Below the pieces are notes generated by a model that made no database searches, was not told where the DNA came from, and saw nothing but the letters and a program-made list of their open reading frames with translations. A DNA stretch of 64,000 bases from positions 2,666,001 through 2,730,000 of the forward strand of contig NZ_CP023278.1 of the NCBI RefSeq assembly GCF_002896875.1. The letters are read 5' to 3'. The position numbers and the translations under genes were made by a program. Positions 13,226 to 37,978 of the stretch are shown here, one piece after another. Each line of letters begins with the position of its first letter. The first letter of the stretch is position 1. This DNA is from Nostoc sp. CENA543 (GTDB lineage: Bacteria; Cyanobacteriota; Cyanobacteriia; Cyanobacteriales; Nostocaceae).

Positions 13226-13357
13226 CGCAAGGTCGGGGGTGCCTCAGTGGTTGTTTCTACCCCAATAGGGAACAAAAATGCTAGAACCCGCGTGGTTGAG
13301 GGATTCTTACCCCCCACAGTCCCCCTGTTTTTTGAAAATATAGGGGGGACTGTGGGG
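13226..13357 (+). repeat. Inverted conserved block, copy 1 (hairpin-ended)
   Basis: About 130 bp match the reverse complement of 35541-35673 with scattered differences. Shared landmarks in order: CGCAAGGTCGGGGGTGCCTC, CCAATAGGGAACAAAAATGC, GGATTCTTACCCCCCACAGT, then a 14 bp hairpin stem (13312-13325 with 13344-13357) around a GTTTTTTGAAAAT loop. No coding frame. The block precedes the GIY-YIG/polymerase promoter. The unusual conservation of a non-coding element with a strong hairpin suggests a cis-acting DNA site or structured RNA. Confidence 0.85.
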
Positions 13358-13446
13358 TCGATCTTTCTACTGGTAAATACTTAGGGTTTTTGTGATTTTA
13401 CAGTCTAAGTACACCTTATTTAGCTTGTATTTTCCTTGATTGCATA

Positions 13447-13487
13447 TTGACAGCACTATGTCTTTCTGTGCTATAATAGTGGTGTCA
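13447..13487 (+). promoter_or_regulatory. Promoter-operator 1, for GIY-YIG and polB
   Basis: TTGACA (13447-13452) and TATAAT (13472-13477) are 19 bp apart. The 19-mer TGCTATAATAGTGGTGTCA (13469-13487) is identical at 35752-35770 and has one mismatch at 35414-35432 on the other strand. Half-sites TGACAGCAC (13448-13456) and GTGGTGTCA (13479-13487) form a dyad with 22 bp between them, so a repressor could span the promoter. Confidence 0.8.
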
Positions 13488-13504
13488 ACACATAAAGGAC
13501 TTAT

Positions 13505-14017
13505 ATGAGTAAGAAACATACTTCACTGAGATTAGAAGAGGAGCTACTCGAAAGCTTGAAGTTAGAGGCTGATAATAGTGGTATGAGTCTAAACGACTAT
13601 CTAGTCAAGAACTTACAGGGTCTAGTTGAAGACACCCTCCCACTACTAAATAAAGAAGAGCTGCCTGAACAACCCTCCGTCTATTTCGTACTAGATGTCA
13701 GTGGACAAATTCTCTATATTGGGCAGACCCGTAACCTTAAGGAAAGCTGGGCTAAGCATCAAAGACTAAGACAACTAGAGTCACTTGGTTTAGTCTCTAT
13801 CGCTTGGGTAGGCTGTGAGGAAAGCGAGCTTGGTTCTCTAGAGACTTCTTTGGTAGAGATATTAAAGCCGAAGTTAAACGACCAACCTAGACCCCATGAA
13901 ACAACAGTTGCCGTCCGCTTACCACATTCCGAGCTGGAGTTGCTCACAGAATACGCCCAGAAGACTAACCGCACTGTCTCTGAAGTTATTGGCGACTACT
14001 CCCGCACCCTCCGCTAG
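13505..14017 (+). CDS. RHH-GIY-YIG-RHH fusion protein
   Basis: 170 residues in three parts. Residues 1-42 look like a ribbon-helix-helix DNA-binding domain (TSLRLEEELLESLKLEAD). Residues 58-127 are a compact GIY-YIG nuclease domain: VYF at 59-61, YIG at 71-73, R76, H85, E113 (LETSLVEIL) and N125. Residues 132-170 are a second ribbon-helix-helix (TTVAVRLPHSELELLTEYAQ). AAAGGA lies at the proper distance before the ATG. As the first gene behind promoter-operator 1 and next to the DNA polymerase, it might nick a replication or homing site, or act as a DNA-binding regulator of its own operator. Both roles are inferred. Confidence 0.85.
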   Translation: MSKKHTSLRLEEELLESLKLEADNSGMSLNDYLVKNLQGLVEDTLPLLNKEELPEQPSVYFVLDVSGQILYIGQTRNLKESWAKHQRLRQLESLGLVSIAWVGCEESELGSLETSLVEILKPKLNDQPRPHETTVAVRLPHSELELLTEYAQKTNRTVSEVIGDYSRTLR

Positions 14018-14021
14018 ACAA

Positions 14022-14064
14022 TGTAAATGCCAGTGGTGACTGGTACTCCCCACTGGCATTTACA
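14022..14064. promoter_or_regulatory. Perfect 15 bp inverted repeat before polB
   Basis: TGTAAATGCCAGTGG and CCACTGGCATTTACA flank a 13-base loop and lie between the GIY-YIG gene and polB. No T-run follows, so it is a poor terminator. It could be an mRNA control hairpin, a cleavage site for the upstream nuclease or an origin-like cruciform. Confidence 0.7.
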
Positions 14065-14100
14065 AAACCCTAATTCAAATAATTCAAAGGATTTCAAGCT

Positions 14101-16959
14101 ATGTCTATTATACCCCAAAACCCCAAGACCGCATCATCTGGAGCTAAGAAAGTGTCAACTCTGGTAATCGCTACAGACTCCGAGTGGGACAAGACCGTAA
14201 GGGAAGTTGTTAAGAGTGAATGGCTCTCTACCCAGTTTTCAACCTATAGCAAGCTTACCGGAGAGAAGAGACGCTACCTGTTTGTTAGTAATGATGTCTC
14301 TACGCCCTGCTACAAGCGCCTCATGTCCTATGAACTTGTTTCTGGTGTGAAAGTCATCTTTGTCGAGATGAGCGACTCCCTGAACCTCATAGAATATATC
14401 CTCAACGACTGCGATAAAGACCGCCAGCACAAGAATATTAACCTGTTGATGTTCTACAGCCCTAAAGACCTTGAGTACGCTTTTGGCTGGGATTTCATCC
14501 AACCTCTGTATATGTCTGGAGCTATTCAACAGAAAAGAAATATTAGCTGCCGCCCCCCTTTCGTGCTAGAAGTTAATGAGCATAAATACACCGTAGACAT
14601 CAAAGACATGAAGGGATGGTCTGGTAACAGTGGTTTAAAAGCTCTAGCAGATGCTGTGGGTGTGAAGATGCAAAGTAAAGCTGGTATGGACTCATACAAA
14701 ACTCACATGAGAGACGGTCTGGAAGCCTTCCCTGACCTGTTTGCAGCCTACTCTATGGGTGATGTGGACGACTTACTATCTATCTACTCTGCTTTCGTTG
14801 AGCTAGTACGCTGGGTGCAGCACGAAGTTATTGGTCTCCCTAAGGAGATGTGCTTCAACGAAGAGAACATCCCCATGACTACTGGTTCTTTGGTTGCTAA
14901 AACCTTAGAGAGCTGGATTTACTGCCAAGGCGACCGCCGAGAGATTGAGTTCGCAATCAAGAAGCTTGGGTTATTAGATAGCTCTGATAAAGAACACAAG
15001 AAGAACCTAGACCACTACCATAATGTCATTGAGGTTCTAAACACTCGCAACAAGCTTAGAAACTCTATTGCTGAGTATTCTAAGTCCTCTAATAGCGTAG
15101 ACGGTAGAGCCCTTAGTCAGTTTTTTCGCCTGCCCTTCAGCTTCCTGGGTATCTCCCAATGCAGTGTGAACTACTTCGCCCGCATCACTGAAGATTCCTC
15201 AGCTTTCAATGCTCTGGTACAGGGTGGAAGATGCAACAACGAGCGCCCCAGTGAATATGTCTGTGAACTAGGTGCCGACATTGACCTTAACTCCTGCTAC
15301 GGTAGTGCCCTAAGAGCCTTTACCTTCCCTCTAGGTTTACCTACTGTCTGGGGTTGGAAGCCTAACCAAAAGCGCATGAGTCTTAAGCAGTGGCTTGCCA
15401 AGTACGAATCCGACCTAGTTGATAACCTATGGACTGTCACAGTTTCTGGTGAGATTAAGTTCTGCCAAGATTTAATCTACAGTAAGATTGTCTCCCAGAA
15501 GGATATCAACCGTGCAGCCCTTGGTGAAGACTGGGATAAAGAAACTGACGATACCGACCGCGACGATGATGTCGCTCACATCCCTGGACACTTCGCCCTC
15601 ATCCGCAAACAGATTCAGAACGGGATTATTACCAGCGATGTTTTAAAGGTTCTTCGTGCAGTAGCCACTAACAAAGAACTCAACGAGTTGATGAGTCTTA
15701 CAGTAGAGAGCGCGGCTGCCTACCTAAAGAGTGATGAAGTGCCTAGCGTTGATGCGTGGATTGAATGTGTAGTTAGTGATAAGGGCTCGCTGGAAAATGT
15801 TAACGGTAAACGCGACCTTAGCTCTGATACTCGCACTCGCAAATGGGTTTCTCTACACCTAGAGGGATTCATAGGTAAGCTAGTAGATGTGCGCGGCGGT
15901 CTCAAGTCCATCTCTAACTCCGGTACAGCTCCTGCCGAAGAGAAAACTACTGCCACTGCTAAACAGGAAATTCTCAAGCTGTTTGTTAATACTAGTTATG
16001 GTGTATCTGCTAGCCCATACTTCAGTGTTGGTAACACTGTCCTAGCTAATAACATTACCGCTAGAGCTAGAGTTGGTGCCTGGATGCTAAACAAAGCCCT
16101 CCACACACGCCAATCTATTACTGATGGTGGTTTCTACAGTCTCCTACACGTACCTACCCTTAAAGACTCGGCTAGACTTCCTGGCTTTGATACTTTAAGC
16201 GACAATACCAAGTGGACTGACACCAAGAACTACACTCGAATTACTACCCCTCTCGCTGGGCTAGACTGGGCTAGTATCTTCTCTCATATTGCTGACTTCG
16301 TTAAAGAAAGTGACCCAGCTACCCTGCCTAAGAAGTCTAAAGACTGGGGTGCTTTCCTGAAGGCTGTTAGCCGTGAAGTTGAGAACCTTGACTCTCTAGC
16401 TAAAGAACATATCGATAAGTTCTGGAATCGTTATAACTTGTCCTTACCCTTCAATATCGAACACAAGATTGAGAATTGTTTTTCTGTCGCTAGCTTTATT
16501 AACAAGGCACACTACTATATTCATAGTGTTTATGACGGAGAGGTATTCAAAATCCGTGGCGCTCGTAACTATGAAGAGTCTGCACTGAGAAAACACCCCT
16601 CCTACGAATTACTCAAGGGATTGGCTTTCGGTGGTGATTATTTCCCCTCTGACCTGAACTATGACCATAAATCCCTACTGAAGATAAACAAGTGGGTTAT
16701 GGCTCAAGCTAGCGCGGGATTTGACACTGTAAAGCAGGTTAGACCTGGAGATGAATTAATCGAAGTCCGCACCGCCCGCTATAACAACACCCATATCTTC
16801 TGTGAAAGTGTTGACGACTTCAAGAGACGTAGCGAACGCAAGACAGTTAACCGAGGTGAAAAACTGGAGTGGTTTGAACGCGCTAGAGCTAACGGGTTTA
16901 GCAAAGTTCACGCCTTGATGATGCTAGATACCCTACAACTTGGTACATACAAGAAGTAG
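14101..16959 (+). CDS. polB: Family B DNA polymerase
   Basis: 952 residues. The 3'-5' exonuclease shows Exo I D26/E28 (TDSEWD), an Exo II candidate near D123-D131 and Exo III Y217/D221 (YSMGDVDD). Polymerase motif A is D395-L-N-S398-C-Y400 (a Dx2SLYP variant), motif B is K626-x3-N630-T-S-Y633-G (Kx3NSxYG), and motif C reads ITDGG with D675, lacking the first aspartate of the usual DTD. About 230 residues separate motifs A and B, far more than in minimal enzymes, and might include a TPR1-like insertion as in protein-primed polymerases. AAAGGAT precedes the ATG. No helicase, primase, clamp or terminal protein is recognised in the element. Confidence 0.9.
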   Translation: MSIIPQNPKTASSGAKKVSTLVIATDSEWDKTVREVVKSEWLSTQFSTYSKLTGEKRRYLFVSNDVSTPCYKRLMSYELVSGVKVIFVEMSDSLNLIEYILNDCDKDRQHKNINLLMFYSPKDLEYAFGWDFIQPLYMSGAIQQKRNISCRPPFVLEVNEHKYTVDIKDMKGWSGNSGLKALADAVGVKMQSKAGMDSYKTHMRDGLEAFPDLFAAYSMGDVDDLLSIYSAFVELVRWVQHEVIGLPKEMCFNEENIPMTTGSLVAKTLESWIYCQGDRREIEFAIKKLGLLDSSDKEHKKNLDHYHNVIEVLNTRNKLRNSIAEYSKSSNSVDGRALSQFFRLPFSFLGISQCSVNYFARITEDSSAFNALVQGGRCNNERPSEYVCELGADIDLNSCYGSALRAFTFPLGLPTVWGWKPNQKRMSLKQWLAKYESDLVDNLWTVTVSGEIKFCQDLIYSKIVSQKDINRAALGEDWDKETDDTDRDDDVAHIPGHFALIRKQIQNGIITSDVLKVLRAVATNKELNELMSLTVESAAAYLKSDEVPSVDAWIECVVSDKGSLENVNGKRDLSSDTRTRKWVSLHLEGFIGKLVDVRGGLKSISNSGTAPAEEKTTATAKQEILKLFVNTSYGVSASPYFSVGNTVLANNITARARVGAWMLNKALHTRQSITDGGFYSLLHVPTLKDSARLPGFDTLSDNTKWTDTKNYTRITTPLAGLDWASIFSHIADFVKESDPATLPKKSKDWGAFLKAVSREVENLDSLAKEHIDKFWNRYNLSLPFNIEHKIENCFSVASFINKAHYYIHSVYDGEVFKIRGARNYEESALRKHPSYELLKGLAFGGDYFPSDLNYDHKSLLKINKWVMAQASAGFDTVKQVRPGDELIEVRTARYNNTHIFCESVDDFKRRSERKTVNRGEKLEWFERARANGFSKVHALMMLDTLQLGTYKK

Positions 16960-16973
16960 ATTATAGATACAAC

Positions 16974-17008
16974 AAAAGCCCGGCTCTAGTTGATAGAGCC
17001 GGGCTTTT
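16974..17008. terminator. Bidirectional terminator between polB and tail genes
   Basis: AAAAGCCCGGCTCT and AGAGCCGGGCTTTT form a perfect 14 bp stem around a 7-base loop, with A and T runs on the two sides. It separates convergent units: polB ends at 16959 and the leftward late operon at 17023. Confidence 0.95.
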
Positions 17009-17022
17009 CCTTATGTTTAAAC

Positions 17023-17226
17023 CTAAGCTTCAGGCTCAGGTGTTACCGCCTTCTTAGGCTTGCTGGGTGTGAGCAGCTTCCGCATCTCTTTGGCTGTGTT
17101 TAACCAAGCCACCTGCTGAAAGGGATTCATGTACTGCCAAACATCAGCGTGGACTTCCTTGTCGCAGCCGCTGCGTATGCTCTCGTAGGTACTGTATAGC
17201 TCACAAGCTAGTTGTTCGTCAGTCAT
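17023..17226 (-). CDS. Small hypothetical protein closing the late operon
   Basis: 67 residues, acidic N-terminal half and Lys/Pro-rich tail (SKPKKAVTPEPEA). No motif recognised. It follows the spike gene by 24 bp and ends at the bidirectional terminator, so it is most likely the last gene of the leftward virion operon. Small proteins in this position can be baseplate or lysis accessories, but nothing in the sequence decides it. Confidence 0.65.
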   Translation of the reverse strand: MTDEQLACELYSTYESIRSGCDKEVHADVWQYMNPFQQVAWLNTAKEMRKLLTPSKPKKAVTPEPEA

Positions 17227-17250
17227 AGATGTTTCTCCTATAGAAATTAA

Positions 17251-17988
17251 TTACCAGCCCTTATTAACGATTGTGTCGCCGTCCGAGTCGATAGCACCGA
17301 CGGTTGCCAGGGACTTCCCATTTAGGGTTACGGTACTTCCGTTTATAAAGTTGATAGAGGCACCCATTAAATTTATTGTCCAAGTACCAGATATGCGGTT
17401 TGTGCCATCAAAGCCTAACTCTATAAAGTTGGTCGCCCCTGCCTGTAGTCTCAAGTAGCGCGAGGCAAACAGCACCAAGTCCTGCACCGCCTGCATATTG
17501 ATGTTTTGCTCACTATCAACGCTAAAATCGCCATCGCAGTTGTTTGTTATGTCGTTACTTACTTCCAGCGTGGACGAGCCATCAACTGTTGTAGTATCGT
17601 CACCCTTGATGCTTGCCGTGCGATCGCCGTCTATGACGCTTGCGTGGTCATCTATCGCGTCTGACTTGTCTAGCGGTGGGTTAGTGTCATTTACTATCTG
17701 GAGGTAGTAGGCGTTCGTTTCTAGCCCGTCTGCGTAGAGAATTAAGACTGTCTGCCCCACCTGGGGTAGTGGAGGATCATACTGTCTGTAAGGTACGAGG
17801 CGGCGTATCCAGTCACTTTGCACTAGCGGGTTTGAGGCTGTGACCACCTTGATGCGCCGCTGCCCCTCTGGGTCTTGATTACTGACCACAACACCCAAAG
17901 TCGGGTAAGGCACTCTCCCTTGTTGGTCTAGAGCTATCTGTGTAGCCCGCTGCGCTTGCAAAAGTAAGTCAAATAATGGGTTGCTCAT
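17251..17988 (-). CDS. Baseplate spike protein (gpV/gp5-like)
   Basis: 245 residues. The N-terminal part (about 25-105: YPTLGVVVSNQDPEGQRRIK, PQVGQTVLILYADG) matches the OB-fold of phage baseplate assembly protein V and gp5/VgrG spikes. The C-terminal part consists of short polar repeats (DGDRTASIKGDDTTTVDGSS, SVDSEQNINMQ) typical of a trimeric beta-helix needle, ending in a DSDGD stretch. In contractile tails this protein sits on the hub and pierces the envelope. It directly follows the hub gene, as expected. Confidence 0.87.
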   Translation of the reverse strand: MSNPLFDLLLQAQRATQIALDQQGRVPYPTLGVVVSNQDPEGQRRIKVVTASNPLVQSDWIRRLVPYRQYDPPLPQVGQTVLILYADGLETNAYYLQIVNDTNPPLDKSDAIDDHASVIDGDRTASIKGDDTTTVDGSSTLEVSNDITNNCDGDFSVDSEQNINMQAVQDLVLFASRYLRLQAGATNFIELGFDGTNRISGTWTINLMGASINFINGSTVTLNGKSLATVGAIDSDGDTIVNKGW

Positions 17989-18010
17989 ACCTGGAGTCTA
18001 GCCAAAGTGA

Positions 18011-20245
18011 TTAGTTAGGAATAAATTTCCGAGGGTTTAAGTCTGCACCGCTTTTACGTACTTCCCAGTGTAAATGATTGCCAAAACTTTTTCCTGTATT
18101 ACCTACAGTTCCTATCTTTTGTCCCTGACTCACTGTCTGACCATTTGTAACATTAACTTCTGTTAGGTGTGCATACCTCGTGAGCCAACCGCCGCCGTGG
18201 TCGATGTCCACCTTATTTCCATATCCCCCGCCACAGCTTCCATTACCCACCCTGCAACCAGAAACTACATCGACTACCGTACCACTAGCTGAAGCTACAA
18301 CAGGTGTACCAGCGGCTGCCCCATAATCAATTCCTTGATGCCTCGGTCGCTTGGGGTTCTCTGTTCTGTGCCTACTGGTTATTGGCCCTGTCGTGGGTCG
18401 AATAAACTTAGGTGCATCAGCGTCAAAGGGCACGCCAGGTGCTTGAGGTACGTTAGGTGTTATGCTAGGCGGTTGGTTAATGTCTGTAGAGGGGTATTTA
18501 TTTCTTAGCGGGCTGTACAGGTCTACGTCTGTAGTCAACCCTCCTTCCGTGTATGTATGGCGCACGTTCTCTACAACCCAGTACCTGTCTGCTGTTATGC
18601 TCACGCCCCTAGTCCTAAAAGGTGTGTCAGGTGTAATGAGCAAAGCTTCCTCTGTTGTAGGAAACACAGCGCTCGCCTTGATACCCTTGATGCGCTTCTC
18701 GTTCTCGCGTCGCTGGCTGTCTGCTGCTGCCGTTGTACCGTCTGTTTTTGGCTTAGGGGTTGGTAGGGCATTACCTGAGATAATAGCGGTTGTATCGCCA
18801 CCTAGAGCCGATGTAGACTCTTTCTTGGTTTGCTTGACCTTCCCTGTGGCTGGATCGATTTGATATTTAATTACACCTGTTGTACCTCGGTTACTTGGGT
18901 CTGAAGCCCGCGCCCCACCTTTAGTGTCGCTCTCCGCCTCGTGGGTTATCTCGAAGCTTATGCCCATGTTCACGCCGTACTCTAGGGTAAAAGTATTGGC
19001 ACTAATAATCTTTTCCCTTGGCTCAATAGTTAATGTTCTGCCTTTGACATGAACTCTATAACCAATGCGCCGCGCCTCAGCTAACAAGAACTCATAATCG
19101 TTCTGCCCTCGCTGAGGGAAGTATTCATAGTATGGCCCCTCCTCACTCATAGTTAGAGCCATACCATAGGCTGCACATATTTTGGTAGCGAGCTTCTTGA
19201 AGGTCATCTTTTGGTATACGGTGTTTTTCAACCGCCGTGTCATGACCCAAGTCGCAGCCTGCCCTCGAAACTCTAACAAGTCTGGGTCAAAGAGACTGTA
19301 TCTTAAGCCAGTGTGGATGAAACTAAAAGCAGCAATTGTCGTACCGTTGTAACCTAATTCAACTGTAATCTGTGCGCCGACTAAGGTTTTTGCTGAACTA
19401 CTTGCTACTTTCTTGGTAACGCTGGCAGTAGAAACAGACTGTGTAGCCGCTACCTGCGGCGTGGTGTTTGTTGCAGGTGTATTAGCTACTTCCTTCCTTT
19501 GCTCTATCTCCTGCGCTGTTTCCTTCTGTTGCTTTGTCGCCTGTACATCGCTAGCTGTAGCTGTTCCTGGCTGAATCCACTCAATCTTGACGTTGACAAT
19601 ACCAGGAGCCGCGCCGTTAGTTAATGCCTTCCATGCGCCAGGCACTAAGTCTATCTTTCTTGTTGGGTGTTCCCGAAGTGGTCTAGCAGCTCTGCCGTTT
19701 TCTACTGCAAAGGGGCCACGGTCTACAACCTTCACCAAGATTTGTTTATTGTTGGTTAGGTTGGTGACGCGCATGGTGGCATACTTGTACTTTGTATTGA
19801 CCATCGCTGCAAACAGACCATCCCACTGGATGCGATCGCCGTAAGCACCAATCTGACCGCCTTGGGTTACCTCACCGTAGCCGTAGGTCGAAGCCTGCAC
19901 ATTTTCGTATATAACCTGACCTGGCTGTGTCTCCAGACTTGGGTTGCCTACGTGGCTAGTTGGGTTTGGGTTAACTGTCGCGGTTAAGTCTGCCTGTGTC
20001 GGGTTGGGGTCGTTTAGTTCGTTTAGCCCCTCGACCTGCTCAACATGTGCCAGATATTTATCTAATAGTTCACGGTTGGGGTCTCTAACGGTAAACTTGC
20101 AGTTACTTTGTAACGTGCCCTCGCCTAGCTCTACCTCGGCTGAGACTAGCTTGCCGTCGCCTATGGTAAAGGTATCTGCCTTGAGACTACCAATAGAGCC
20201 GACCGTTATCTTTAAATATGGACTTAATAAGTTTGGACTTGTCAT
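18011..20245 (-). CDS. Baseplate hub fused to RlpA-like and M23 peptidase domains
   Basis: 744 residues from the ATG at 20245, whose first base is the last of the upstream stop (TGATG); a GTG at 20257 adds four codons. The hub fold (gpD/gp27/VgrG-like) starts the protein, is interrupted by an RlpA-type double-psi barrel (about 113-226; VKVVDRGPFA, TRKIDLVPGAW), resumes near 290-480 (LEYGVNMGISFEITHEAE), and ends in an M23 endopeptidase (last ~120 residues: RHQGIDYGAAAGTP, RYAHL, NHLHWEV) with the zinc ligands present. RlpA-like domains cleave glycan strands and M23 cuts peptide cross-links, so the tail tip may attack both parts of peptidoglycan on entry. Confidence 0.88.
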   Translation of the reverse strand: MTSPNLLSPYLKITVGSIGSLKADTFTIGDGKLVSAEVELGEGTLQSNCKFTVRDPNRELLDKYLAHVEQVEGLNELNDPNPTQADLTATVNPNPTSHVGNPSLETQPGQVIYENVQASTYGYGEVTQGGQIGAYGDRIQWDGLFAAMVNTKYKYATMRVTNLTNNKQILVKVVDRGPFAVENGRAARPLREHPTRKIDLVPGAWKALTNGAAPGIVNVKIEWIQPGTATASDVQATKQQKETAQEIEQRKEVANTPATNTTPQVAATQSVSTASVTKKVASSSAKTLVGAQITVELGYNGTTIAAFSFIHTGLRYSLFDPDLLEFRGQAATWVMTRRLKNTVYQKMTFKKLATKICAAYGMALTMSEEGPYYEYFPQRGQNDYEFLLAEARRIGYRVHVKGRTLTIEPREKIISANTFTLEYGVNMGISFEITHEAESDTKGGARASDPSNRGTTGVIKYQIDPATGKVKQTKKESTSALGGDTTAIISGNALPTPKPKTDGTTAAADSQRRENEKRIKGIKASAVFPTTEEALLITPDTPFRTRGVSITADRYWVVENVRHTYTEGGLTTDVDLYSPLRNKYPSTDINQPPSITPNVPQAPGVPFDADAPKFIRPTTGPITSRHRTENPKRPRHQGIDYGAAAGTPVVASASGTVVDVVSGCRVGNGSCGGGYGNKVDIDHGGGWLTRYAHLTEVNVTNGQTVSQGQKIGTVGNTGKSFGNHLHWEVRKSGADLNPRKFIPN

Positions 20246-21467: not shown

Positions 21468-21470
21468 AAT

Positions 21471-24439: not shown

Positions 24440-24440
24440 A

Positions 24441-25913: not shown

Positions 25914-25917
25914 ATAT

Positions 25918-27297: not shown

Positions 27298-27302
27298 GGG
27301 CT

Positions 27303-27653: not shown

Positions 27654-27657
27654 AGGA

Positions 27658-28617: not shown

Positions 28618-28619
28618 GT

Positions 28620-29192: not shown

Positions 29193-29254
29193 GCGTATAT
29201 CCTTATGAATAAAAGGTGTCTGCTATAAGTCCCCAGCAGTAGGGGTAATCTGGT

Positions 29255-30760
29255 TTATAAGGCGGTGCCAGTTGCCTCTATAATTATGTTTTCGTCACTT
29301 TGTAGCATCTGGTCTATCTCGTCATTGATAGCTTGCTGCTGCTCAGCGCTGAGGTTTCCTACCAGAAGGTTGACAATCTGACTGTAGGTGAGTTTATAAG
29401 CCGTGGGCGGTAGGTTAGCTCTAAGCACAGAGAAGTTGATACCTGTTAGGTTGCTAACTTCCTCAATCAAAGACTCTAAGGTGTTGTTCTCGAAGTTAGA
29501 CAACCCAGTGACGGAGATAAGTTCAGGATTAGCCAGCCCAGCCGAGCGTGCAACTAGTTGTAAGACTTGCTGGTAGCACTGGCATAGCAATGCACCATAT
29601 TCTCGTAAGATGGCTTCCTGCTTTACGAAGTCCATCTGCTTAGACACACCGGACTGGCGTATAGCTTCAGTGGTAACAGAGCCACCACCTAGAGATACTA
29701 AATCACGTACTTCAGCTTTGATAGACTCTAGAGTCTTGTTGATGTGCTCAACAATCGTGCCTTGCGGCTCGTTCCACTCGAACTTCTCTAACTCTAGGAC
29801 GTGTTGCAGTCCAGTCTTTAATGGTTCTATCTCTGTGTAACTCTCGGTCAAGTCACCGTCAGGCATGACAGTGCGTTTGTAGGTGCGTTGGAAGTATGCC
29901 AGCGTGAGCATATCATGGCGGCTGTGCTCAGTCTTTAAGTGTTCTAGGGCTTTAGGATATGCCTGGTTTCCTACCCACAGGTTATCGGGTAGTTCTAACT
30001 TTATAACTGGCAGGGTGTTTAAGCCGTGGGCTATTTCAGACGTAAGGGAGACTTCAGTCTCGTCATTGACTGGCTCACCATTAACCTTCTCAATCTTCCC
30101 TGACTTAGATAGTTCAACTACAGCAGAGTAGGTGGCAACCGAGCGCTCGTCTATGAACTTCCAGGTAACAACTGTCTGTGGTTCCTGTGCGGGGTTTGGT
30201 TGTATCTTAAATTGCTGTCGAACCTTAATCCACCGCAGTCTACTATCTTCATACCAATCTGTAACTTGGAAGGGGGAATAAGCAACTACATAGGGGCGTA
30301 AACCTAACACCTGCTCTTGCAATCTATTGGCTGGGCGGACGGCGCTGGGTGGCTTATCGACGTGTAGGAACACCTTCCCAAACTTCAACACTTCACGGAA
30401 GACGTGGGAGATTAACTCTTTCTCTGAGCGCCCGTTTAATGATGTATCTTCCCTAAACTCGTTCCAGAAGTTTTCATCACTTACTAAGCCGGAGACAACC
30501 AGACTAGAGTTACTAAGCTTGCTGACTTGCTGGCTGATAGCGGAGCCCAATAAGTTGGTATAGCAGTATTTACTCAGGCGAGTTTCGTATAGTTCCTGGG
30601 TCTCACCAGGGCGGCGGGGTAGAAACTCCTCTAGGTTCTTCTCTAGGCGATGACCACCTGCGGTTAATAAGTCAATGCGGCGCAGGGAGTTGATGCTAGA
30701 TAGATAGTCATCGTGACAGGTTTCTAGCAGCTTAAACTTTAATTTAGCGGGGTATGTCAT
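29255..30760 (-). CDS. Portal protein (DUF4055-type)
   Basis: 501 residues. Segments such as RRPGETQELYETRLSKYCYT, LVSLGGGSVTTEAIRQSG and a C-terminal helical bundle resemble portal proteins annotated as DUF4055. The portal forms the ring through which DNA is packaged. It overlaps the TerL stop by four bases and is followed 60 bp later by the scaffold gene. Length is normal for the family. Confidence 0.85.
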   Translation of the reverse strand: MTYPAKLKFKLLETCHDDYLSSINSLRRIDLLTAGGHRLEKNLEEFLPRRPGETQELYETRLSKYCYTNLLGSAISQQVSKLSNSSLVVSGLVSDENFWNEFREDTSLNGRSEKELISHVFREVLKFGKVFLHVDKPPSAVRPANRLQEQVLGLRPYVVAYSPFQVTDWYEDSRLRWIKVRQQFKIQPNPAQEPQTVVTWKFIDERSVATYSAVVELSKSGKIEKVNGEPVNDETEVSLTSEIAHGLNTLPVIKLELPDNLWVGNQAYPKALEHLKTEHSRHDMLTLAYFQRTYKRTVMPDGDLTESYTEIEPLKTGLQHVLELEKFEWNEPQGTIVEHINKTLESIKAEVRDLVSLGGGSVTTEAIRQSGVSKQMDFVKQEAILREYGALLCQCYQQVLQLVARSAGLANPELISVTGLSNFENNTLESLIEEVSNLTGINFSVLRANLPPTAYKLTYSQIVNLLVGNLSAEQQQAINDEIDQMLQSDENIIIEATGTAL

Positions 30761-32022
30761 AGTAAATTCTTTCTCTGAATGGCACTATAAAGCGTTGCTA
30801 TGCAATAGCGTGAACTGTCAACGTAGTGATCTGGCTGACCATCAGCAGGTTGATTGAGAATAGTTCCATCCCTATCCTGCTTACGGTGGTAGCTCTGGAA
30901 CTGGTTAATTAAGGTTTTTAGACTCGACTTAATGTGTAGACAGTCACGATAAAATAAGTTGTTCATTATCTGACAACCTTCCACAACACCAACAGCGCGG
31001 CGGTCTACTGCTACAGCCTTCTCCATACCTCTAATACCGTGTTTCCGTCCGTACTCACGGGAGGCTTTAATGCTGGCAGGTCTATCATCAGGTAGGTAAC
31101 TCCGGTAAACGTTGTATTGCCGACAGAAAGCCGCCATCTTGCCGAGGAATTCGTCTTGTACTATAGGCTGACTAGTTTGGTTTAACCAGCCGTCTAAAAC
31201 GAGGAACCTACTGTGATCTTTGGTCAAGCCGACTACGACAATACATGGGTTAACATCACCCCAGTCGATACCGAGGTAGTAGGTCAAGTCTTCCATAGGT
31301 GTTTTATCTATTAGATGTCTGTCTCGCATCTCATCGAAGAACTGCCCATCAAAAGACTCAAAGCTTGCACGGTACTCCTGGTTATATATCTTCTCAGGTA
31401 GCTCTTTCCTAGCTTGTACTAGCTTAGACAGGGGGATGTATGGGTTATGCTTCGTGAAGTAGTGGTGGAAACTCCACTCAGGGCTAGCGATCGCATCTAG
31501 GTGAAACTTATATAGCCAGTGAGCCTTGCCTTTCGGTGTGCAGGTTAGCAGGGCAGAACTACCAGGTGTGTCAGACAGGGCGGGAACAATAACATACTGC
31601 CAGACAGCTAGCTTAATGTCTTGAAACTCGTCAGCACCACAGAAGTAAATCTTTAACCCACGCAAGCTATCGCCATCATCGTCGTTACATCCCCTAATGA
31701 GGATATCGGGGCGCTCGCCTGCCATGATGATTCTAGACTCAGACTTATTAATCCCAGCTACGAAAGGTACGCCAGCCAGTAAGTTCTCTAATGGTTTCCA
31801 GTGAATCTGTCTCGCCTGTTTAAGTGTGGGCATGACCAGTAGATTGACTGGGGGTGAGGCGGGGTCATATACACCGTTGAAGGTAAGCGAGCGCTCAATT
31901 ACCTTGGTAAGCATAAGTCTTGACTTACCAAACCTCCTCCCTGAGAGTAAAAGGTTAAACGGCTTAGGGTCTTGAAACACCCGCATCTGGTTAGGATGTA
32001 AATCAAGCTTAAAGCTGCTCAT
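30757..32022 (-). CDS. terL: Terminase large subunit
   Basis: 421 residues. The ATPase half has Walker A SGRRFGKS (27-34) and Walker B IYFCGADEFQD (about 128-138). The nuclease half has GIDWGDVNP (about 245-253), a middle acidic site (LPDDRPASI) and a C-terminal HYVDSSRY, matching the acidic triad of the RNase H-like packaging nuclease. It cuts and pumps phage DNA into the prohead. It overlaps TerS by 14 bp. Confidence 0.95.
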   Translation of the reverse strand: MSSFKLDLHPNQMRVFQDPKPFNLLLSGRRFGKSRLMLTKVIERSLTFNGVYDPASPPVNLLVMPTLKQARQIHWKPLENLLAGVPFVAGINKSESRIIMAGERPDILIRGCNDDDGDSLRGLKIYFCGADEFQDIKLAVWQYVIVPALSDTPGSSALLTCTPKGKAHWLYKFHLDAIASPEWSFHHYFTKHNPYIPLSKLVQARKELPEKIYNQEYRASFESFDGQFFDEMRDRHLIDKTPMEDLTYYLGIDWGDVNPCIVVVGLTKDHSRFLVLDGWLNQTSQPIVQDEFLGKMAAFCRQYNVYRSYLPDDRPASIKASREYGRKHGIRGMEKAVAVDRRAVGVVEGCQIMNNLFYRDCLHIKSSLKTLINQFQSYHRKQDRDGTILNQPADGQPDHYVDSSRYCIATLYSAIQRKNLL

Positions 32023-32461
32023 ACTCTTCAGGTTCGATTGGGATATCTTCTTGAGGTGGGGAGTGGCTACTTATAATCACCTGCGTATTAGGTGCCACGA
32101 CTTCAGCGGTAAGTTCTTCCTTAATAAGCTTTACAGCAGCTACGGCAGCAGCCTCATGACCATTCTGCATAGCAGCTTCTAGTATCTTCTCTAGAGATTG
32201 GATTCTTAGTATCTTGTGCCCTAACTTAATGACTCCAGTTGCCTTCGCTACCCTTAAGCAATAGCCATCATCAGAGGACATCTTTTTCACTATAGGCTCA
32301 GACCTCTCAAGGCTCTTGGTGCATTGCTTGTAGGTCATTCTGATGCCGAACTGTTTCTCTACTAAAGTAGTAAGCTGGGCACGGCTGATACTAGGGTTGA
32401 GCACTCGATGAAGTGCAATGAATTCCAATTCACATTGTCTTATAGGGGAATTTCTATCCAT
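32009..32461 (-). CDS. terS: Probable terminase small subunit
   Basis: 150 residues. An N-terminal helix-turn-helix-like part (NPSISRAQLTTLVEKQFGIR) is followed by an oligomerisation-like helical region (SLEKILEAAMQNGHEAAAV) and an acidic tail (PIEPEEYEQL). No strong signature, but size, domain order and overlap with TerL support DNA-recognition terminase. It is preceded by a 70 bp gap that probably holds the late promoter or at least a break from the HTH genes upstream. Confidence 0.78.
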   Translation of the reverse strand: MDRNSPIRQCELEFIALHRVLNPSISRAQLTTLVEKQFGIRMTYKQCTKSLERSEPIVKKMSSDDGYCLRVAKATGVIKLGHKILRIQSLEKILEAAMQNGHEAAAVAAVKLIKEELTAEVVAPNTQVIISSHSPPQEDIPIEPEEYEQL

Positions 32462-32530
32462 AAGTGTAGGGGCGAAGGTGTATTGAAGTAAGAAAAGTAC
32501 CCGCGCCCCTCTACATATATGTTTTTGTCA

Positions 32531-32887
32531 TCACAGTCGAGATAGGATAACCTGCACTAATGATTCGATAGCATGAATGAGTGTAGAAGATTGCCACTCA
32601 CATAGCGGGAGTGAAGTATAGGAATGGACGTACTGACTGTTAATAAACTCTTGGTAGGTGTCGGAGGGCTGGAACTCTTGGACTATGGCACACATATGCA
32701 GTGGTTGAATAGCACACAGCGCATCATGCACATCTTCAGAGGTTAGCTGACCCCACAGAGTGTTAGTAGGGTGTAGCTCATAGAGCGGGCGTGTGAGCCA
32801 GTCTAGCCGAACATTATCTAGGTTGCCTGAGAAGTAATCAGAGAGAACTTCTACCAAGTCTCGTGTATTGATATAGCAAGTTAGCAT
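32531..32887 (-). CDS. Hypothetical prophage protein, 118 aa
   Basis: I do not recognise the family. The frame is open to 32941, but its first codon there is TTG; ATG codons at 32926 and 32887 are better starts, and GGGAAGAG precedes the latter. The product is acidic with alternating helices (TRDLVEVLSDYFSGNLDNV, SSTLIHAIESLVQVIL). Even from 32887 it overlaps the upstream HTH gene by 50 bp. Probably an early or late-switch protein between regulators and terminase. Confidence 0.55.
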   Translation of the reverse strand: MLTCYINTRDLVEVLSDYFSGNLDNVRLDWLTRPLYELHPTNTLWGQLTSEDVHDALCAIQPLHMCAIVQEFQPSDTYQEFINSQYVHSYTSLPLCEWQSSTLIHAIESLVQVILSRL

Positions 32888-33281
32888 CGAACTCTTCCCT
32901 AGTGCTGTATGGGTTTGGTTTTGCATTTTTGGTACTAACAATTAACTTCCGGTTTTCTGAGATGCACGCCGCCTTAAGTGCTTTCTCTGTATAGGCTGGT
33001 CTAGTAGCTAGCTGACCCTCTCTAACGATTAAGTGGGTGTGTTGGTCATACCAGCTCTTGATGCTGGCGTGATGCCTCTTAAAAGCAGGGTCAGTCAAGT
33101 ATTCATTAACAATGTCAGAGAGGAAGTTATTACCGTGTTTGCTGTAGCCGAAGTATTTACGAAAGCGACGCGCCAGGGTGTTATCACTAACGCCTACTTC
33201 CTTAGCTAGTCGGCAGGTAGGTTCGCCGTCTAGGTGTCGCCTGAAGAGAGATTCAAGCTTCTCCTGTGGTATATCAAGCAT
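32838..33281 (-). CDS. HTH-domain DNA-binding protein, 147 aa
   Basis: A clear helix-turn-helix lies at about 12-42 (HLDGEPTCRLAKEVGVSDNT, then LARRFRKYFG), similar to resolvase and transposase-type HTHs. The rest is helical and basic, with no catalytic motif. It lies directly upstream of the terminase genes in the same direction. A late-gene activator or a second terminase small-subunit-like DNA binder are both possible. Confidence 0.68.
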   Translation of the reverse strand: MLDIPQEKLESLFRRHLDGEPTCRLAKEVGVSDNTLARRFRKYFGYSKHGNNFLSDIVNEYLTDPAFKRHHASIKSWYDQHTHLIVREGQLATRPAYTEKALKAACISENRKLIVSTKNAKPNPYSTREEFDANLLYQYTRLGRSSL

Positions 33282-33434
33282 AGGTAAATAACTATAGGAC
33301 TATATATCTATCCTAGAAATAATGAGGGGAGAAAACAAAGCGGGGGAGCGAGGTTGGGGCAGGCTGGGTTTGGTTTTGGTTTCTTTTTTAAATTGGATAG
33401 GCTGGAAGTATAAAGATTAGAAAGGAGAAATTAA

Positions 33435-33608
33435 ATGTTTTACCCAATAATGCTCGCTATCGTAACCGCAAATATGTTAGTAGCCCTCAGACAGAGATCA
33501 TTAATCAAGAAGCGTGGTGAAGAGATTCAAGCAGTAATTGAGTATCTAGCAGAGGCGAGAAAGGATGATACAGCTAAGCATATTTCTTTTAGTTCTATAG
33601 ATGTTTAG
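33435..33608 (+). CDS. Small membrane-anchored protein, 57 aa
   Basis: One hydrophobic N-terminal segment (MFYPIMLAIVTANMLVAL) is followed by a charged helix (KKRGEEIQAVIEYLAEARK). AAAGGAGA lies seven bases before the ATG, a strong ribosome site that argues the gene is real. First of a short rightward group ending at the terminator at 34055-34095. Function unknown. Confidence 0.62.
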   Translation: MFYPIMLAIVTANMLVALRQRSLIKKRGEEIQAVIEYLAEARKDDTAKHISFSSIDV

Positions 33609-33650
33609 CTTTGTAATTATAGGGATATTGGTTATAGACAAGGAAAGACT

Positions 33651-33818
33651 ATGAAAAATGTGACGGTGCCGTTAAGTGATGAGTTATTAGCAGCCTTGAG
33701 GGATAAGGCGGAGGCACGAGGACGTACTTTGAATGAACAACTCCGAATAGCCTTGAGATTCTATGTAGCCAGCCAGTTCGTAGAACAACCCATGAAGAGA
33801 GGTAGACATCATGCCTAG
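33651..33818 (+). CDS. Ribbon-helix-helix (Arc-like) regulator, 55 aa
   Basis: A short beta strand (MKNVTVPLSDELL) is followed by two helices (AALRDKAEARGRTLNEQLRI), the pattern of Arc/CopG repressors, which bind operators as dimers of dimers. AAGGAAAG precedes the ATG. Its last eight bases overlap the next gene. A regulator of one of the dyad operators in the element is plausible but not shown. Confidence 0.72.
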   Translation: MKNVTVPLSDELLAALRDKAEARGRTLNEQLRIALRFYVASQFVEQPMKRGRHHA

Positions 33819-34056
33819 AGGTAATGTAAGACTAACCGTTAGCCGGAAGGATTATAGAACCCTGGAGAACATAGCTGATGCTGTAGGCTTTAAGTTTACC
33901 AAAGACGGTAAGGGGGCCAGCCAGATACTAAGTTTTATCTTAGCTATGTATGGCAAGAGCATCCTAGACAACTTAGAGAACACGCGGGTGATGTTTGTTG
34001 AAGAAGACCACCCAGAAGAACAAGGCTCAGGCGCTAACAAAATGGGATTTAAATAA
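33811..34056 (+). CDS. Hypothetical small protein, 81 aa
   Basis: Starts inside the last codons of the RHH gene, so translation is probably coupled. N-terminal part (NVRLTVSRKDYRTLENIADA) has a strand-helix shape reminiscent of RHH proteins, but the second helix is not typical. Acidic C-terminus. A partner or paralogue of the Arc-like protein is possible. Confidence 0.6.
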   Translation: MPRGNVRLTVSRKDYRTLENIADAVGFKFTKDGKGASQILSFILAMYGKSILDNLENTRVMFVEEDHPEEQGSGANKMGFK

Positions 34057-34095
34057 AAGAAAGACCCTGGCTTCGTCGGCTAGGGTCTCTTTCTT
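34055..34095. terminator. Bidirectional terminator between convergent genes
   Basis: AAGAAAGACCCT and AGGGTCTCTTTCTT pair (one bulge) around a 13-base loop, with A and T runs on either side. It lies between the rightward 81-aa gene and the leftward AP2 gene. Confidence 0.85.
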
Positions 34096-34735
34096 AGTAG
34101 GTAGTAGGTATACCGCGCTCCCTACAGTAAGCATCTCGGACAGTAATAGCGTCCTCTAGCAGTTTATATATACCGAGATACTTTCCATAAACAGATACCT
34201 GATATAAGTTCAGGTCTTGCTTCAGGTATATGTATTTTCCATACGGGGCGGCGTTGGTACGTTTTCTAGGCTCAGGAGGGTATAGAACAGCATCACCATA
34301 AGTAAAGTTTAGGTTTTTAGTATTGCGACCCTCATAGCGAATAGCGGCGCGGTCTACAGCTCTAGCGGCACATTCTTCAGTGTCGTAAGTTCCTAGATAT
34401 AACTGTTTACCTTGAGGGTTGTAATAGTAAGTAGCCCAGCCGCCGTGACTGTAGTAGACACCACGGTACTGGCTCTTAGGGCGCTCTTCAAACATTTCAT
34501 CTTCTGAGCGTCTGCGAACAGGAGTAGGTAAGGGAAATACTTCATACTCGAAGTTAACAGGGAGTTTAAGGTGGCGGGCATAGTTGTCATAGGTGAGGAC
34601 AGCTTGAAGTTCATACTCAAACAAACCATAGCTCTTCAAGGGTGAAGAATCTGGTAGGTACGCTTCCCAGAGTTTAAGGCGGAAGTCGTAGCGTACACCA
34701 ATAAAGGTCGGATGTTTCTTAAAATACTTAGCCAT
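34094..34735 (-). CDS. Protein with three AP2-like DNA-binding modules
   Basis: 213 residues. The middle module (about 88-145: SQYRGVYYSHGGWATYYY, LGTYDTEECAARAVDRAAIR) is a clear AP2/ERF-type domain. The first (11-62: GVRYDFRLKLWEAYL, AVLTYDNYARHLKLPVNF) and third (164-208: YLGIYKLLEDAITVRDAY) are diverged versions of the same strand-strand-strand-helix unit. In phages AP2 domains are usually joined to HNH homing endonucleases; no HNH is present here. A sequence-specific DNA-binding protein is likely; its target is unknown. Confidence 0.8.
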   Translation of the reverse strand: MAKYFKKHPTFIGVRYDFRLKLWEAYLPDSSPLKSYGLFEYELQAVLTYDNYARHLKLPVNFEYEVFPLPTPVRRRSEDEMFEERPKSQYRGVYYSHGGWATYYYNPQGKQLYLGTYDTEECAARAVDRAAIRYEGRNTKNLNFTYGDAVLYPPEPRKRTNAAPYGKYIYLKQDLNLYQVSVYGKYLGIYKLLEDAITVRDAYCRERGIPTTY

Positions 34736-34900
34736 ATGGGTTTATTAGAGGGACGTACAATCAGACTAACTAAGCGGGAGGCTCAGATCCTAGAGCTACT
34801 AGCTGAGCCTTACAACAGGGAGTGGATATGCCAGCACCTACAGATAAGTCGGAGGACGCTGGAGAATCATATATATATGCAGCGGCTGACAAGTTTTTAA
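34736..34900 (+). CDS. Small LuxR-type HTH protein, 54 aa
   Basis: Almost the whole protein is one HTH of LuxR/sigma-70 region 4 type (LTKREAQILELLAEPYN, ICQHLQISRRTLENHI). The ATG at 34736 adjoins the start of the divergent AP2 gene; a further start upstream would lie inside that gene. With no room for a promoter between them, transcription must begin inside the AP2 gene. A transcriptional regulator is likely. Confidence 0.62.
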   Translation: MGLLEGRTIRLTKREAQILELLAEPYNREWICQHLQISRRTLENHIYMQRLTSF

Positions 34901-35118
34901 TAGAGCGTGACGCTGTGGGGTTGGTAGTGACTTACATGAAGTGTCGGCAGGCTGGGTTAATTGAAGTAGGGGACAGGGCAAAAAAGGCTTACTTGGACGA
35001 GGAGACGGTAAGAAAGATAAAAACCTACCGCGAGGCAGGTATGACACATAACCAACTTGCTGAACGGTTCAGCGTGTCGAAACAAACTATAAGGAAGGTT
35101 TTAGAGGGCACAAGTTAG
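34828..35118 (+). CDS. Small HTH regulator, 96 aa
   Basis: Begins at an ATG within the preceding HTH gene (73 bp out-of-frame overlap; a GTG at 34822 is an alternative). The C-terminus is a clean resolvase-type HTH (YREAGMTHNQLAERFSVSKQ, TIRKVLEG). The N-terminal half is helical and unassigned. Two overlapping HTH genes in tandem suggest paired regulation of the genetic switch. Its last 18 bases overlap the convergent gene at 35101. Confidence 0.68.
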   Translation: MPAPTDKSEDAGESYIYAAADKFLIERDAVGLVVTYMKCRQAGLIEVGDRAKKAYLDEETVRKIKTYREAGMTHNQLAERFSVSKQTIRKVLEGTS

Positions 35119-35349
35119 ATATTCCCATCTGTGCAGGGGGCAGCAGAACTCTTCATAGCAGTTGTCTTCTTCTAGCTGGTCGGTGGTAAGTTCTTGATAA
35201 TTTATCCACTGGCTGGCGTTTTTGCTGGTTATACGGGACTGGGGAGACTCGTACCAGCTATTGGGGTAAGGTTTAGCTGTGCGGGTGAGGAGGGCGGTTA
35301 ATTCTTCTACGGTGAAATCTCTTTCTTCTCGACAGTCTATATATGTCAT
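35101..35349 (-). CDS. Hypothetical protein driven by promoter-operator 3
   Basis: 82 residues, acidic, with four cysteines (YIDCREE, NCYEEFCCPL) that could bind metal; no family recognised. It is the first gene leftward of promoter-operator 3 (35414-35453), with about 65 bp of leader. Its transcript would also run antisense through the two HTH genes, which may itself be regulatory. Confidence 0.58.
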   Translation of the reverse strand: MTYIDCREERDFTVEELTALLTRTAKPYPNSWYESPQSRITSKNASQWINYQELTTDQLEEDNCYEEFCCPLHRWEYLTCAL

Positions 35350-35413
35350 ATGGATAAAAGTGTAGGGATGAGGTGGGAGGCGGAGGCTTGAAGTGTACCT
35401 CTCTTTTCCTCTC

Positions 35414-35453
35414 TGATACCACTATTATAGCACAAATATCATTTGTGGTGTCA
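35414..35453 (-). promoter_or_regulatory. Promoter-operator 3 (leftward)
   Basis: On the minus strand TGCTATAATAGTGGTATCA (35432-35414) differs by one base from the core of promoter-operators 1 and 2. The half-site TGACACCAC (35453-35445) and GTGGTATCA (35422-35414) are 22 bp apart, the same as at promoter 1. It reads toward the gene at 35349. Confidence 0.78.
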
Positions 35454-35540
35454 ATCTGCTGTTATATTTTTACTAATTTTCTGCAAAATATATATCCCCA
35501 TAAGGGGATTAAAACAAACAAAAATAGCTGTTTCAGAGTA

Positions 35541-35673
35541 CCCCACAGTCCCCCTTGTTTTTTTGAAAATAGGGGGGACTGTGGGGGGTAAGAATCCTTT
35601 AACCACAAGGCTTGCAGCATTTTTGTTCCCTATTGGGGATAGGAACAGTGACTGAGGCACCCCCGACCTTGCG
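35541..35673 (-). repeat. Inverted conserved block, copy 2 (hairpin-ended)
   Basis: Reverse-complement homologue of 13226-13357 with the same order of landmarks and the same 14 bp hairpin (35541-35554 with 35573-35586). The intervening ~90 bp up to promoter-operator 3 are not conserved, while the promoter itself is. The 35350-35788 gap otherwise contains no gene. Confidence 0.85.
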
Positions 35674-37806: not shown

Positions 37807-37842
37807 TTGTCTGACAAAAACATATCTATAGGAGGTGAACCC

Positions 37843-37977: not shown

Positions 37978-37978
37978 T

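What the first reader, a model, noticed from the sequence alone, without database searches (positions are those of the whole stretch)
13226..35673. A 130 bp hairpin-ended non-coding block occurs twice, inverted, bracketing 22 kb of the prophage
13226-13357 and the reverse complement of 35541-35673 share ordered landmarks (CGCAAGGTCGGGGGTGCCTC, CAATAGGGAACAAAAATGC, TTCTTACCCCCCACAGT) and a 14 bp stem. Each copy is followed, about 90 bp inward, by the same promoter core, while the sequence between block and promoter is not conserved. Conservation of a non-coding piece plus a regulated promoter suggests a functional cassette: a structured RNA, paired origin or silencer, or ends of an invertible segment carrying polB and all head and tail genes.
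Basis: partly seen in the sequence, partly recalled or inferred. Interest (0 to 1): 0.78.

Follow-up and report, generated by a model that had tools for sequence, protein, structure and literature searches.

The report
Paired hairpin origin-like DNA in prophage
A 134-base hairpin-bearing DNA element that occurs twice, in opposite directions, in a cyanobacterial prophage is most likely a site where its DNA copying starts, because its core sequence turns up beside a particular DNA polymerase gene in some related phages and plasmids and inside known kinds of replication origins.

Summary
In detail: two 134-bp copies (13226-13359 +, 35540-35673 -), 85% identical, and no other full copy in the own genome. 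The promoter-cassette and invertible-segment readings do not: none of nine homologous loci has the adjacent promoter, and gene order puts this lineage's inversion breakpoints elsewhere. Homologues keep a 29-nt core and hairpins whose stems change sequence but stay paired (10 of 20 pairs, four sequences). Element-bearing genomes are enriched for an unusual polymerase, PolB_SITDG: 4 of 6 by core pattern alone, 6 of 9 counting model hits, against 22 of 217 (P 0.001 and 4e-5). In ten places the core lies 67-226 bp past the polB stop, yet 25 of 35 PolB loci scanned show no core. The core also lies among DnaA boxes upstream of dnaN in one cyanobacterium and beside repeat arrays (iterons) in plasmids of Planktothrix, Acinetobacter, Klebsiella, Limosilactobacillus and Tetragenococcus. 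Best reading: a replication origin or priming site built around an origin-associated motif. Six core strings found no relevant paper in the held library. No replication assay was possible.

The parts
13226..13359 (+). Block A, whole element
   Evidence: 85% identical to block B over 134 bp; R1/R2 model match 150.9 / 125.5 bits (it was in the training set)
13252..13274 (+). Block A small hairpin: stem TGTTTC/GGAACA, loop with CCCC
   Evidence: two pairs with changes on both sides in G111; broken in G117b and G117c
13280..13308 (+). Block A 29-nt core GCTAGAACCCGCGTGGTTGAGGGATTCTT
   Evidence: most conserved part; pattern hit, 0 hits for the reversed control pattern in 217 genomes
13312..13357 (+). 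Block A terminal hairpin, 14-bp stem with A/T-rich loop
   Evidence: stem letters differ with pairing largely kept in G159, G117 and G136
13447..13477 (+). Promoter core TTGACA-N19-TATAAT followed by GTGGTGTCA; not conserved with the block elsewhere
13505..14017 (+). Ribbon-helix-helix plus GIY-YIG-like protein (170 aa)
   Evidence: RHH_1 E 1.5e-5; GIY-YIG E 5e-4, below its cut-off
14101..16959 (+). PolB_SITDG-type family B DNA polymerase (952 aa)
   Evidence: motif C SITDG and invariant residues in a 13-protein alignment; phrog_36870 E 4e-20, phrog_262 DNA polymerase E 1e-4; no Pfam match
35540..35673 (-). Block B, whole element, inverted relative to A
35541..35586 (-). Block B terminal hairpin
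35590..35618 (-). Block B 29-nt core GCTGCAAGCCTTGTGGTTAAAGGATTCTT
   Evidence: resembles GCTGAAAGCCTTACACAGAAAGGATTCTA in the DnaA-box cluster of L182
35624..35647 (-). Block B small hairpin, TGTTCC/GGAACA
35424..35454 (-). Promoter core reading leftwards towards the head and tail genes
35720..35770 (+). Divergent promoter-like site of the same type reading rightwards

Best explanation
Each block is a cis-acting DNA replication site (an origin, or a single-strand initiation/priming site) of the prophage in its replicating form. It has a conserved 29-nt core that a factor recognises, flanked by hairpins that can form when the strands separate. The phage's own PolB_SITDG polymerase, or a host factor, would start there; two inverted copies would give starts on opposite strands. 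Shown by sequence: conservation, stems that change letters but keep pairing, enrichment of the element in genomes with PolB_SITDG and its place past polB in part of those replicons, and the core's presence in several kinds of origin. Inferred: that the site initiates replication, that it acts as DNA rather than RNA, and which protein reads it.
For: (1) PolB linkage: 6 of 217 family genomes carry the core pattern, and 4 of the 6 are among the 22 of 217 with PolB_SITDG, P 0.001, or 3 of 5 and P 0.007 without the own genome. Adding three genomes found by model (G117, G080, G062) gives 6 of 9, P 4e-5, or 5 of 8 and P 2.5e-4. (2) Position: core 67-226 bp past the polB stop at ten polB 3' ends, three of them fragments or cut by a contig end, 8 of 10 on the opposite strand. 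The order scan by model alone led to three of these replicons (in G329, G450, G495). Background: 0 hits at 25 bits or more in 365,556 control bases. (3) Minimal context: G111's contig, inferred circular at 8,112 bp from a 113-bp end overlap, has polB, one block and no phage gene that I recognised. (4) Origin contexts: 33.6 bits among DnaA-box-like sites just upstream of dnaN in G683 (dnaN E 1e-101), the only hit other than the own genome in 388 class genomes. Weaker matches (14.0-15.6 bits, 0-1 of 60 shuffles as high) in 4 of 41 other DnaA-box clusters, two of the four identical and from one genus. Planktothrix iteron array, 34.2 bits; beside iterons in RepM plasmids, L. reuteri and Tetragenococcus. 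(5) Covariation 0.608 against 0.259 shuffled and at most 0.158 slid.
Against: No replication assay. 25 of 35 PolB-bearing loci scanned (two are duplicates of listed plasmids) have no core at 20 bits or more; 7 of 35 reach 25, and of these 7 only the L124 locus was fetched through a PolB search, its contig having had a model hit before. Of four further PolB loci with a 3' end that had no earlier model hit, 2 have a core past polB (both in G329) and 2 have none above 15 bits; a fifth (G080:C53) has one but had an earlier model hit. All five lie in genomes already known to carry the element. G159 and G136 keep the element without PolB_SITDG; G159 has instead an 826-aa gene with no family or PDB match. 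L140, a CyRepA1 contig (E 1.5e-96) without PolB, has two copies with weak cores of 17.5 bits. In the window, block A lies upstream of polB and none lies past its end. GC skew: an extremum within about 0.45 kb of the site in 5 of 6 circular replicons, but a minimum in two and a maximum in three, with polB direction confounding. The own dnaN cluster lacks the core (0.5 bits). The non-cyanobacterial hits have BLAST E 0.1-1 and were opened because no gene was annotated there. Neither iterons nor DnaA boxes in the blocks.
Confidence: 0.53

Rival explanations
1. Recombination site: the core (AACC-GCAT-GGTT half-sites) is bound by a tyrosine recombinase, for dimer resolution or telomere-related processing of these replicons.
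For: The core is a quasi-palindrome; some of these replicons carry short tyrosine recombinases (L140, L141) or a telomere resolvase (L061); a like sequence lies about 80 bp from an integrase-like gene in a staphylococcal prophage.
Against: G111's 8.1-kb contig shows no recombinase among its listed ORFs (by eye). The core also lies in a chromosomal DnaA-box cluster and at iteron arrays. Conservation extends beyond the half-sites.
Confidence: 0.16
2. Structured RNA (regulatory or primer RNA) transcribed across the block.
For: Stems that keep pairing; a possible GGGG/CCCC pseudoknot seen by eye; the core of the plasmid-type copies looks like an intrinsic terminator.
Against: No promoter of the pattern points into the blocks; block B lies between diverging promoter-like sites; terminal stems are nearly all Watson-Crick (165 to 8 G-U in ten copies); no Rfam family reaches its gathering score in the window.
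Confidence: 0.13
3. Bidirectional terminator or transcription insulator between operons.
For: Strong GC-rich hairpins; several copies sit at gene 3' ends between convergent genes (G159, G111, G117a).
Against: Most terminal hairpins printed lack a T-run (G117a is an exception); both window copies lie in divergent regions; a terminator would not need a core shared with an oriC.
Confidence: 0.09
4. Ends of an invertible 22-kb segment, or dispersed copies of a small non-autonomous mobile element.
For: Inverted orientation; one to three copies per replicon at different places; a large inversion did occur in this lineage.
Against: Inversion breakpoints lie at about 17.1 and 37.5 kb, not at the blocks; I saw no common element ends or target duplications in the alignments; only two copies in the genome.
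Confidence: 0.04

Closest known systems
PolB_SITDG group of B-family DNA polymerases (Kazlauskas et al. 2020, PMC7544198)
   Same: The window polymerase has the SITDG motif C that names the group, and the group is reported from cyanobacteria and algae (passages read).
   Different: The passages read describe no cis element; a text search for PolB_SITDG returned only that paper.
Iteron-type plasmid origins (for example RepM plasmids of Acinetobacter)
   Same: A like core sequence sits directly beside the iterons.
   Different: Window blocks and the two PolB plasmids tested (G111, L142) have no iterons; flanking hairpins take their place.
Cyanobacterial chromosomal oriC upstream of dnaN
   Same: A close core match lies in the DnaA-box cluster of G683, and weaker ones in 4 of 41 other clusters.
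   Different: No DnaA boxes seen in the blocks; 34 of 41 clusters score under 8 bits.
Paired single-strand initiation sites of IncQ plasmids (ssiA/ssiB of RSF1010; recalled, not tested)
   Same: Two inverted hairpin sites per replicon, used to prime opposite strands.
   Different: No sequence comparison was made, and no dedicated primase was looked for in the window.
Anabaena phage A-1(L) / Nostoc phage A1 (PMC4916379, abstract and passages)
   Same: Nostoc phages with a PolB and an antirepressor; A-1(L) has a 24.4-bit core match.
   Different: That match lies inside the antirepressor gene; their PolB is described as related to proteobacterial ones, and the window PolB finds no phage record.

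Membership tests
PolB_SITDG polymerases | Motif C reads SITDG, with the first aspartate replaced | tested here: met
   ITDG invariant in 13 proteins, SITDGG in the window protein
PolB_SITDG polymerases | Falls in the paper's sequence cluster | not testable with these tools
   Supplementary sequences not available; a PDB profile search gave no polymerase
Iteron origin | Array of direct repeats beside the core | tested here: not met
   Window A and B: 1 copy of any 12-mer, against 4-6 in the iteron plasmids
DnaA-dependent oriC | Cluster of DnaA boxes | tested here: not met
   No TTTTCCACA or TTATCCACA in either block as printed, read by eye
Replication origin (functional) | Replication starts here / site needed for replication | not testable with these tools
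   Needs an experiment
Replication origin (functional) | GC-skew extremum of the origin type at the site | tested here: inconclusive
   Extremum near the site in 5 of 6 circular replicons but of mixed sign
Known RNA family (Rfam) | Reaches a family's gathering score | tested here: not met
   0 matches in the window at gathering; only sub-threshold matches locally
Invertible segment | Rearrangement endpoints at the inverted repeats | tested here: not met
   Gene-order breakpoints at about 17.1 and 37.5 kb
Regulated promoter cassette | Promoter conserved next to the block in homologues | tested here: not met
   None of 9 other loci in the corresponding place

The most novel reading that the evidence does not exclude
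The core (about GCTGAAACCC(GCA or TTG)TGGTTnAnGGATTTT) is an undescribed origin motif used across phyla: in some phages and plasmids replicated by PolB_SITDG, in iteron plasmids of cyanobacteria, Firmicutes and gammaproteobacteria, and in some cyanobacterial chromosomal origins. It would be read by a conserved host factor (primase, PriA or helicase loader), with PolB_SITDG replicons using hairpin-flanked versions as self-sufficient origins.
Probability: 0.3. Interest if true: 0.88.

Novelty: new variant of a known kind. Interest (0 to 1): 0.7.

Why it matters
PolB_SITDG polymerases are a named group whose cis-acting replication sites I found nowhere described in the passages read. If the core is a general origin motif, it would link chromosomal, plasmid and phage initiation and point to a common recognition step.

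Tried and rejected
Direct BLAST of block A against phages found nothing, and against plasmids one 27-nt chance match. The genome contigs pattern scan gave matches of about 17-21 nt only. IMG/VR hits L011/L012 carry both blocks at 100% identity and were taken as the same prophage, not counted as independent. Staphylococcal hits L022, L023 and L025 are one prophage family matched by a loose pattern that should give a few chance hits; they score 16 bits with the model. In the family model scan 57 of 217 genomes had a match at E 0.1 or better; I kept those that show the core and set aside the rest, by eye or unopened (opened and rejected: G139, G125), so the 9-genome set is partly chosen by eye and G062's core is only 19.3 bits. 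The 6-genome pattern set is free of that. In the order scan G043, G226 and G236 were set aside (core scores 20.5-21.3 and no PolB); G393 (33.6 bits) and G331 (33.7 bits) have a good core but no PolB and lie outside the family count. Seven plasmid stretches hit by the L140 replication protein served as controls, some of them partial plasmids: 0 of 7 (L225-L231) reach 20 bits, but another, Nostoc C052, has a 25.3-bit match just past cyRepA1. Of 7 non-cyanobacterial plasmid hits opened, 5 have iterons (3 of these are one RepM family) and 2 do not (L240, L242); they were chosen for having no annotated gene, from 38 rows. C. aponinum L237 has neither PolB nor iterons. Small stem AACC/GGTT in the core: not consistent across copies, dropped. 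HK022 put-like antitermination (recalled): rejected because the promoters read away from the blocks. After re-checking I corrected the PolB-first test (now 2 of 4 plus one with an earlier hit, not 3 of 5) and the count of PolB loci without a core (25 of 35), and lowered confidence from 0.58 to 0.53 and interest from 0.72 to 0.70.
Full report
CHECK. Blocks A (13226-13359 +) and B (35540-35673 -) are 85% identical over 134 bp with a single 1-nt indel, and no other full copy exists in the own genome. Both end in a 14-bp stem and fold better than shuffles as RNA and as DNA. A TTGACA-N19-TATAAT core followed by GTGGTGTCA or a near copy lies about 90 bp beyond each block, and a third such site lies on the far side of block B, so B sits between two promoter-like sites reading away from it. 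The frame open across A is shifted in B, so coding is unlikely.

HOMOLOGUES. A DNA search of 217 genomes of the family found two relatives, in G159 and G111. Aligned with A and B they support a small hairpin and a terminal hairpin: 77 of 79 cells paired, 10 of 20 pairs with changes on both sides, covariation 0.608 against 0.259 in shuffles and at most 0.158 when slid. Four sequences are few, and the structure was read from block B, which favours it. A model of these found three copies in one related prophage of G117, plus G136 and G080, among 57 of 217 genomes with any match at E 0.1 or better, most of them weak. With eight sequences the terminal hairpin holds in most, but the small hairpin is broken in G117b and G117c. 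The most conserved part is a 29-nt core between the hairpins.

POLYMERASE LINK. The second gene past block A (after a ribbon-helix-helix/GIY-YIG-like gene) is a B-family polymerase with motif C SITDG, the mark of the PolB_SITDG group that Kazlauskas et al. report from cyanobacteria and algae (PMC7544198, passages). It has relatives in 0 of 50,697 phage records and 9 of 72,556 plasmid records, all cyanobacterial and all listed as non-mobilizable; in those under 10 kb no other replication gene is annotated. Six of 217 family genomes carry the core pattern and 4 of the 6 are among the 22 with PolB (P 0.001, or 3 of 5 and P 0.007 without the own genome). With three genomes added from the model scan by inspection it is 6 of 9 (P 4e-5; 5 of 8 and P 2.5e-4 without the own genome). 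A more sensitive search found a PolB fragment in a seventh, G080. In the order scan (388 genomes, 10 with E at most 0.001) new copies in G329, G450 and G495 proved to lie directly past a PolB_SITDG gene, while G393 and G331 have a good core and no PolB, and G043, G226 and G236 look like chance. In ten places the core lies 67-226 bp past a polB stop (three on fragments or genes cut by a contig end), in 8 of 10 on the opposite strand. In the window itself block A is upstream of polB instead.

HOW FAR THE LINK GOES. A matrix trained on eight phage-type cores gives no hit at 25 bits or more in 365,556 control bases. Of 35 PolB-bearing loci scanned, 7 reach 25 bits, 3 lie between 20 and 22, and 25 are below 20 (two of the 25 are duplicates). 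Most of the negatives are divergent PolBs fetched by PolB search. Of the four PolB relatives of 46% identity or more in the family (G117, G111, G114, G172), two have the element, G172 has a weak model match just past polB (19.5 bits, E 0.0015) and G114 has none in the stretch fetched. Of four further PolB loci with a 3' end and no earlier model hit, all in genomes already known to carry the element, 2 have a core past polB (32.0 and 33.6 bits, both in G329, both inferred circular at 6,396 and 10,216 bp) and 2 have none above 15; G080:C53 has one (27.9 bits) but had an earlier model hit; L198 and L202 have no complete polB 3' end. So the element marks a subset of PolB_SITDG replicons. In Scytonema HK-05, Moorena and Calothrix plasmids a related GCTGAAACCC, CTGAAACCC or GCTGGAAGCC sequence with a long hairpin is seen by eye, which I do not count.

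ORIGIN LINK. A pattern scan of 388 genomes of the class found only the own genome and G683, with no hits for the reversed control pattern. The G683 hit lies just upstream of dnaN (E 1e-101), among DnaA-box-like sites, and scores 33.6 bits. Of 50 dnaN loci examined (of 58 genomes with dnaN; 20 fetched), 41 have a DnaA-box cluster; 4 of 41 contain a match of 14.0-15.6 bits that 0-1 of 60 shuffles reach (two of the four identical and from one genus), and 34 of 41 score under 8 bits, the own genome's among them at 0.5. The L182 match GCTGAAAGCCTTACACAGAAAGGATTCTA differs from block B mainly in the middle. In Planktothrix plasmids a 34.2-bit core lies inside an iteron array in the 3' part of a gene called DUF3987 in one record and hypothetical in the other, upstream of parA in NIES-204. 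BLAST with 38-nt consensus queries (14, 24 and 81 records at E up to 10) led to RepM plasmids of Acinetobacter and Klebsiella, and to L. reuteri and Tetragenococcus plasmids, where the core abuts 4-5 iterons against a shuffle maximum of 2. Vagococcus and L. lactis hits have no iterons. These BLAST hits are individually weak (E 0.1-1) and were opened because no gene was annotated there; their position beside iterons is what carries weight.

WHAT IS NOT SHOWN. Nothing here measures replication. G159 and G136 keep the element without PolB_SITDG; L140, a CyRepA1 contig with palindromic ends, has two copies with weak cores. This fits a site read by a host factor better than one read by PolB_SITDG alone. 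GC skew was of mixed sign. Terminal stems of ten copies show 165 Watson-Crick to 8 G-U pairs, which leans towards DNA but does not prove it.

The promoter is absent at the homologous blocks scanned. Gene order in G117 and G159 shows tail genes V and W adjacent on one strand; in the window they are at 17251-17988 (-) and 38841-39191 (+), so an inversion probably occurred with ends near 17.1 and 37.5 kb, and block B lies inside it.

VERDICT. Real, conserved and most likely a replication site of a little-studied replicon type, with a core that may be a wider origin motif. Six core strings were searched in the held literature and gave five papers whose listed titles are on unrelated subjects; only the listing was seen. 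No claim is made about papers outside that library.

Noticed in passing
window 37840-39191: An HNH-type gene (37979-38908; recognised by eye) follows what reads as a truncated copy of the start of baseplate gene W and overlaps the start of the full W gene (38841), as if it had inserted into W with a duplicated 5' part.
   Followed up: partly
window 16960-37850: Relative to G117 and G159 prophages the stretch from tail gene V to the antirepressor is inverted, with breakpoints near 17.1 and 37.5 kb.
   Followed up: partly
L063 (G062:C91): 12,090-bp contig with PolB_SITDG and 699-bp, 99.7% identical terminal inverted repeats, each holding a core-like site of 19.3 bits.
   Followed up: partly
L140 (G329:C23) ends; L061 (G080:C102) 1-38: Palindromes at contig ends (117 bp at both ends; 38 bp at one), like hairpin telomeres read through; L061 encodes a telomere resolvase (PF16684, E 1.8e-27). 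Elements lie within 2.7 kb of one of these ends.
   Followed up: partly
L064:6954 and L233:1505: Core-like sequences (25.9 and 24.4 bits) lie inside antirepressor genes of the G159 prophage and of phage A-1(L); coding constraint or an origin inside the gene are both possible.
   Followed up: no
L064:9728-12208: 826-aa gene stands where a polymerase gene would be in the G159 prophage; no Pfam, PHROG or PDB match; an 'HDG'-like motif suggested a polymerase to the eye only.
   Followed up: partly
L056:147-2557: The G117 prophage lies next to what looks (from memory) like a Cas12k gene with a MerR-like regulator.
   Followed up: no
L025:5891-5918: A staphylococcal prophage has AAACCGCATGGTTAAGGGATTTT between repeated AGTCCCTAAA sites near its integrase-like gene; probably a chance match.
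   Followed up: partly
L160:6204-6232 (G023:C101): A 2-mismatch core beside a hairpin lies near urease-like genes (recognised from memory) on a contig separate from that genome's PolB contig, perhaps a relic of an integrated plasmid.
   Followed up: no
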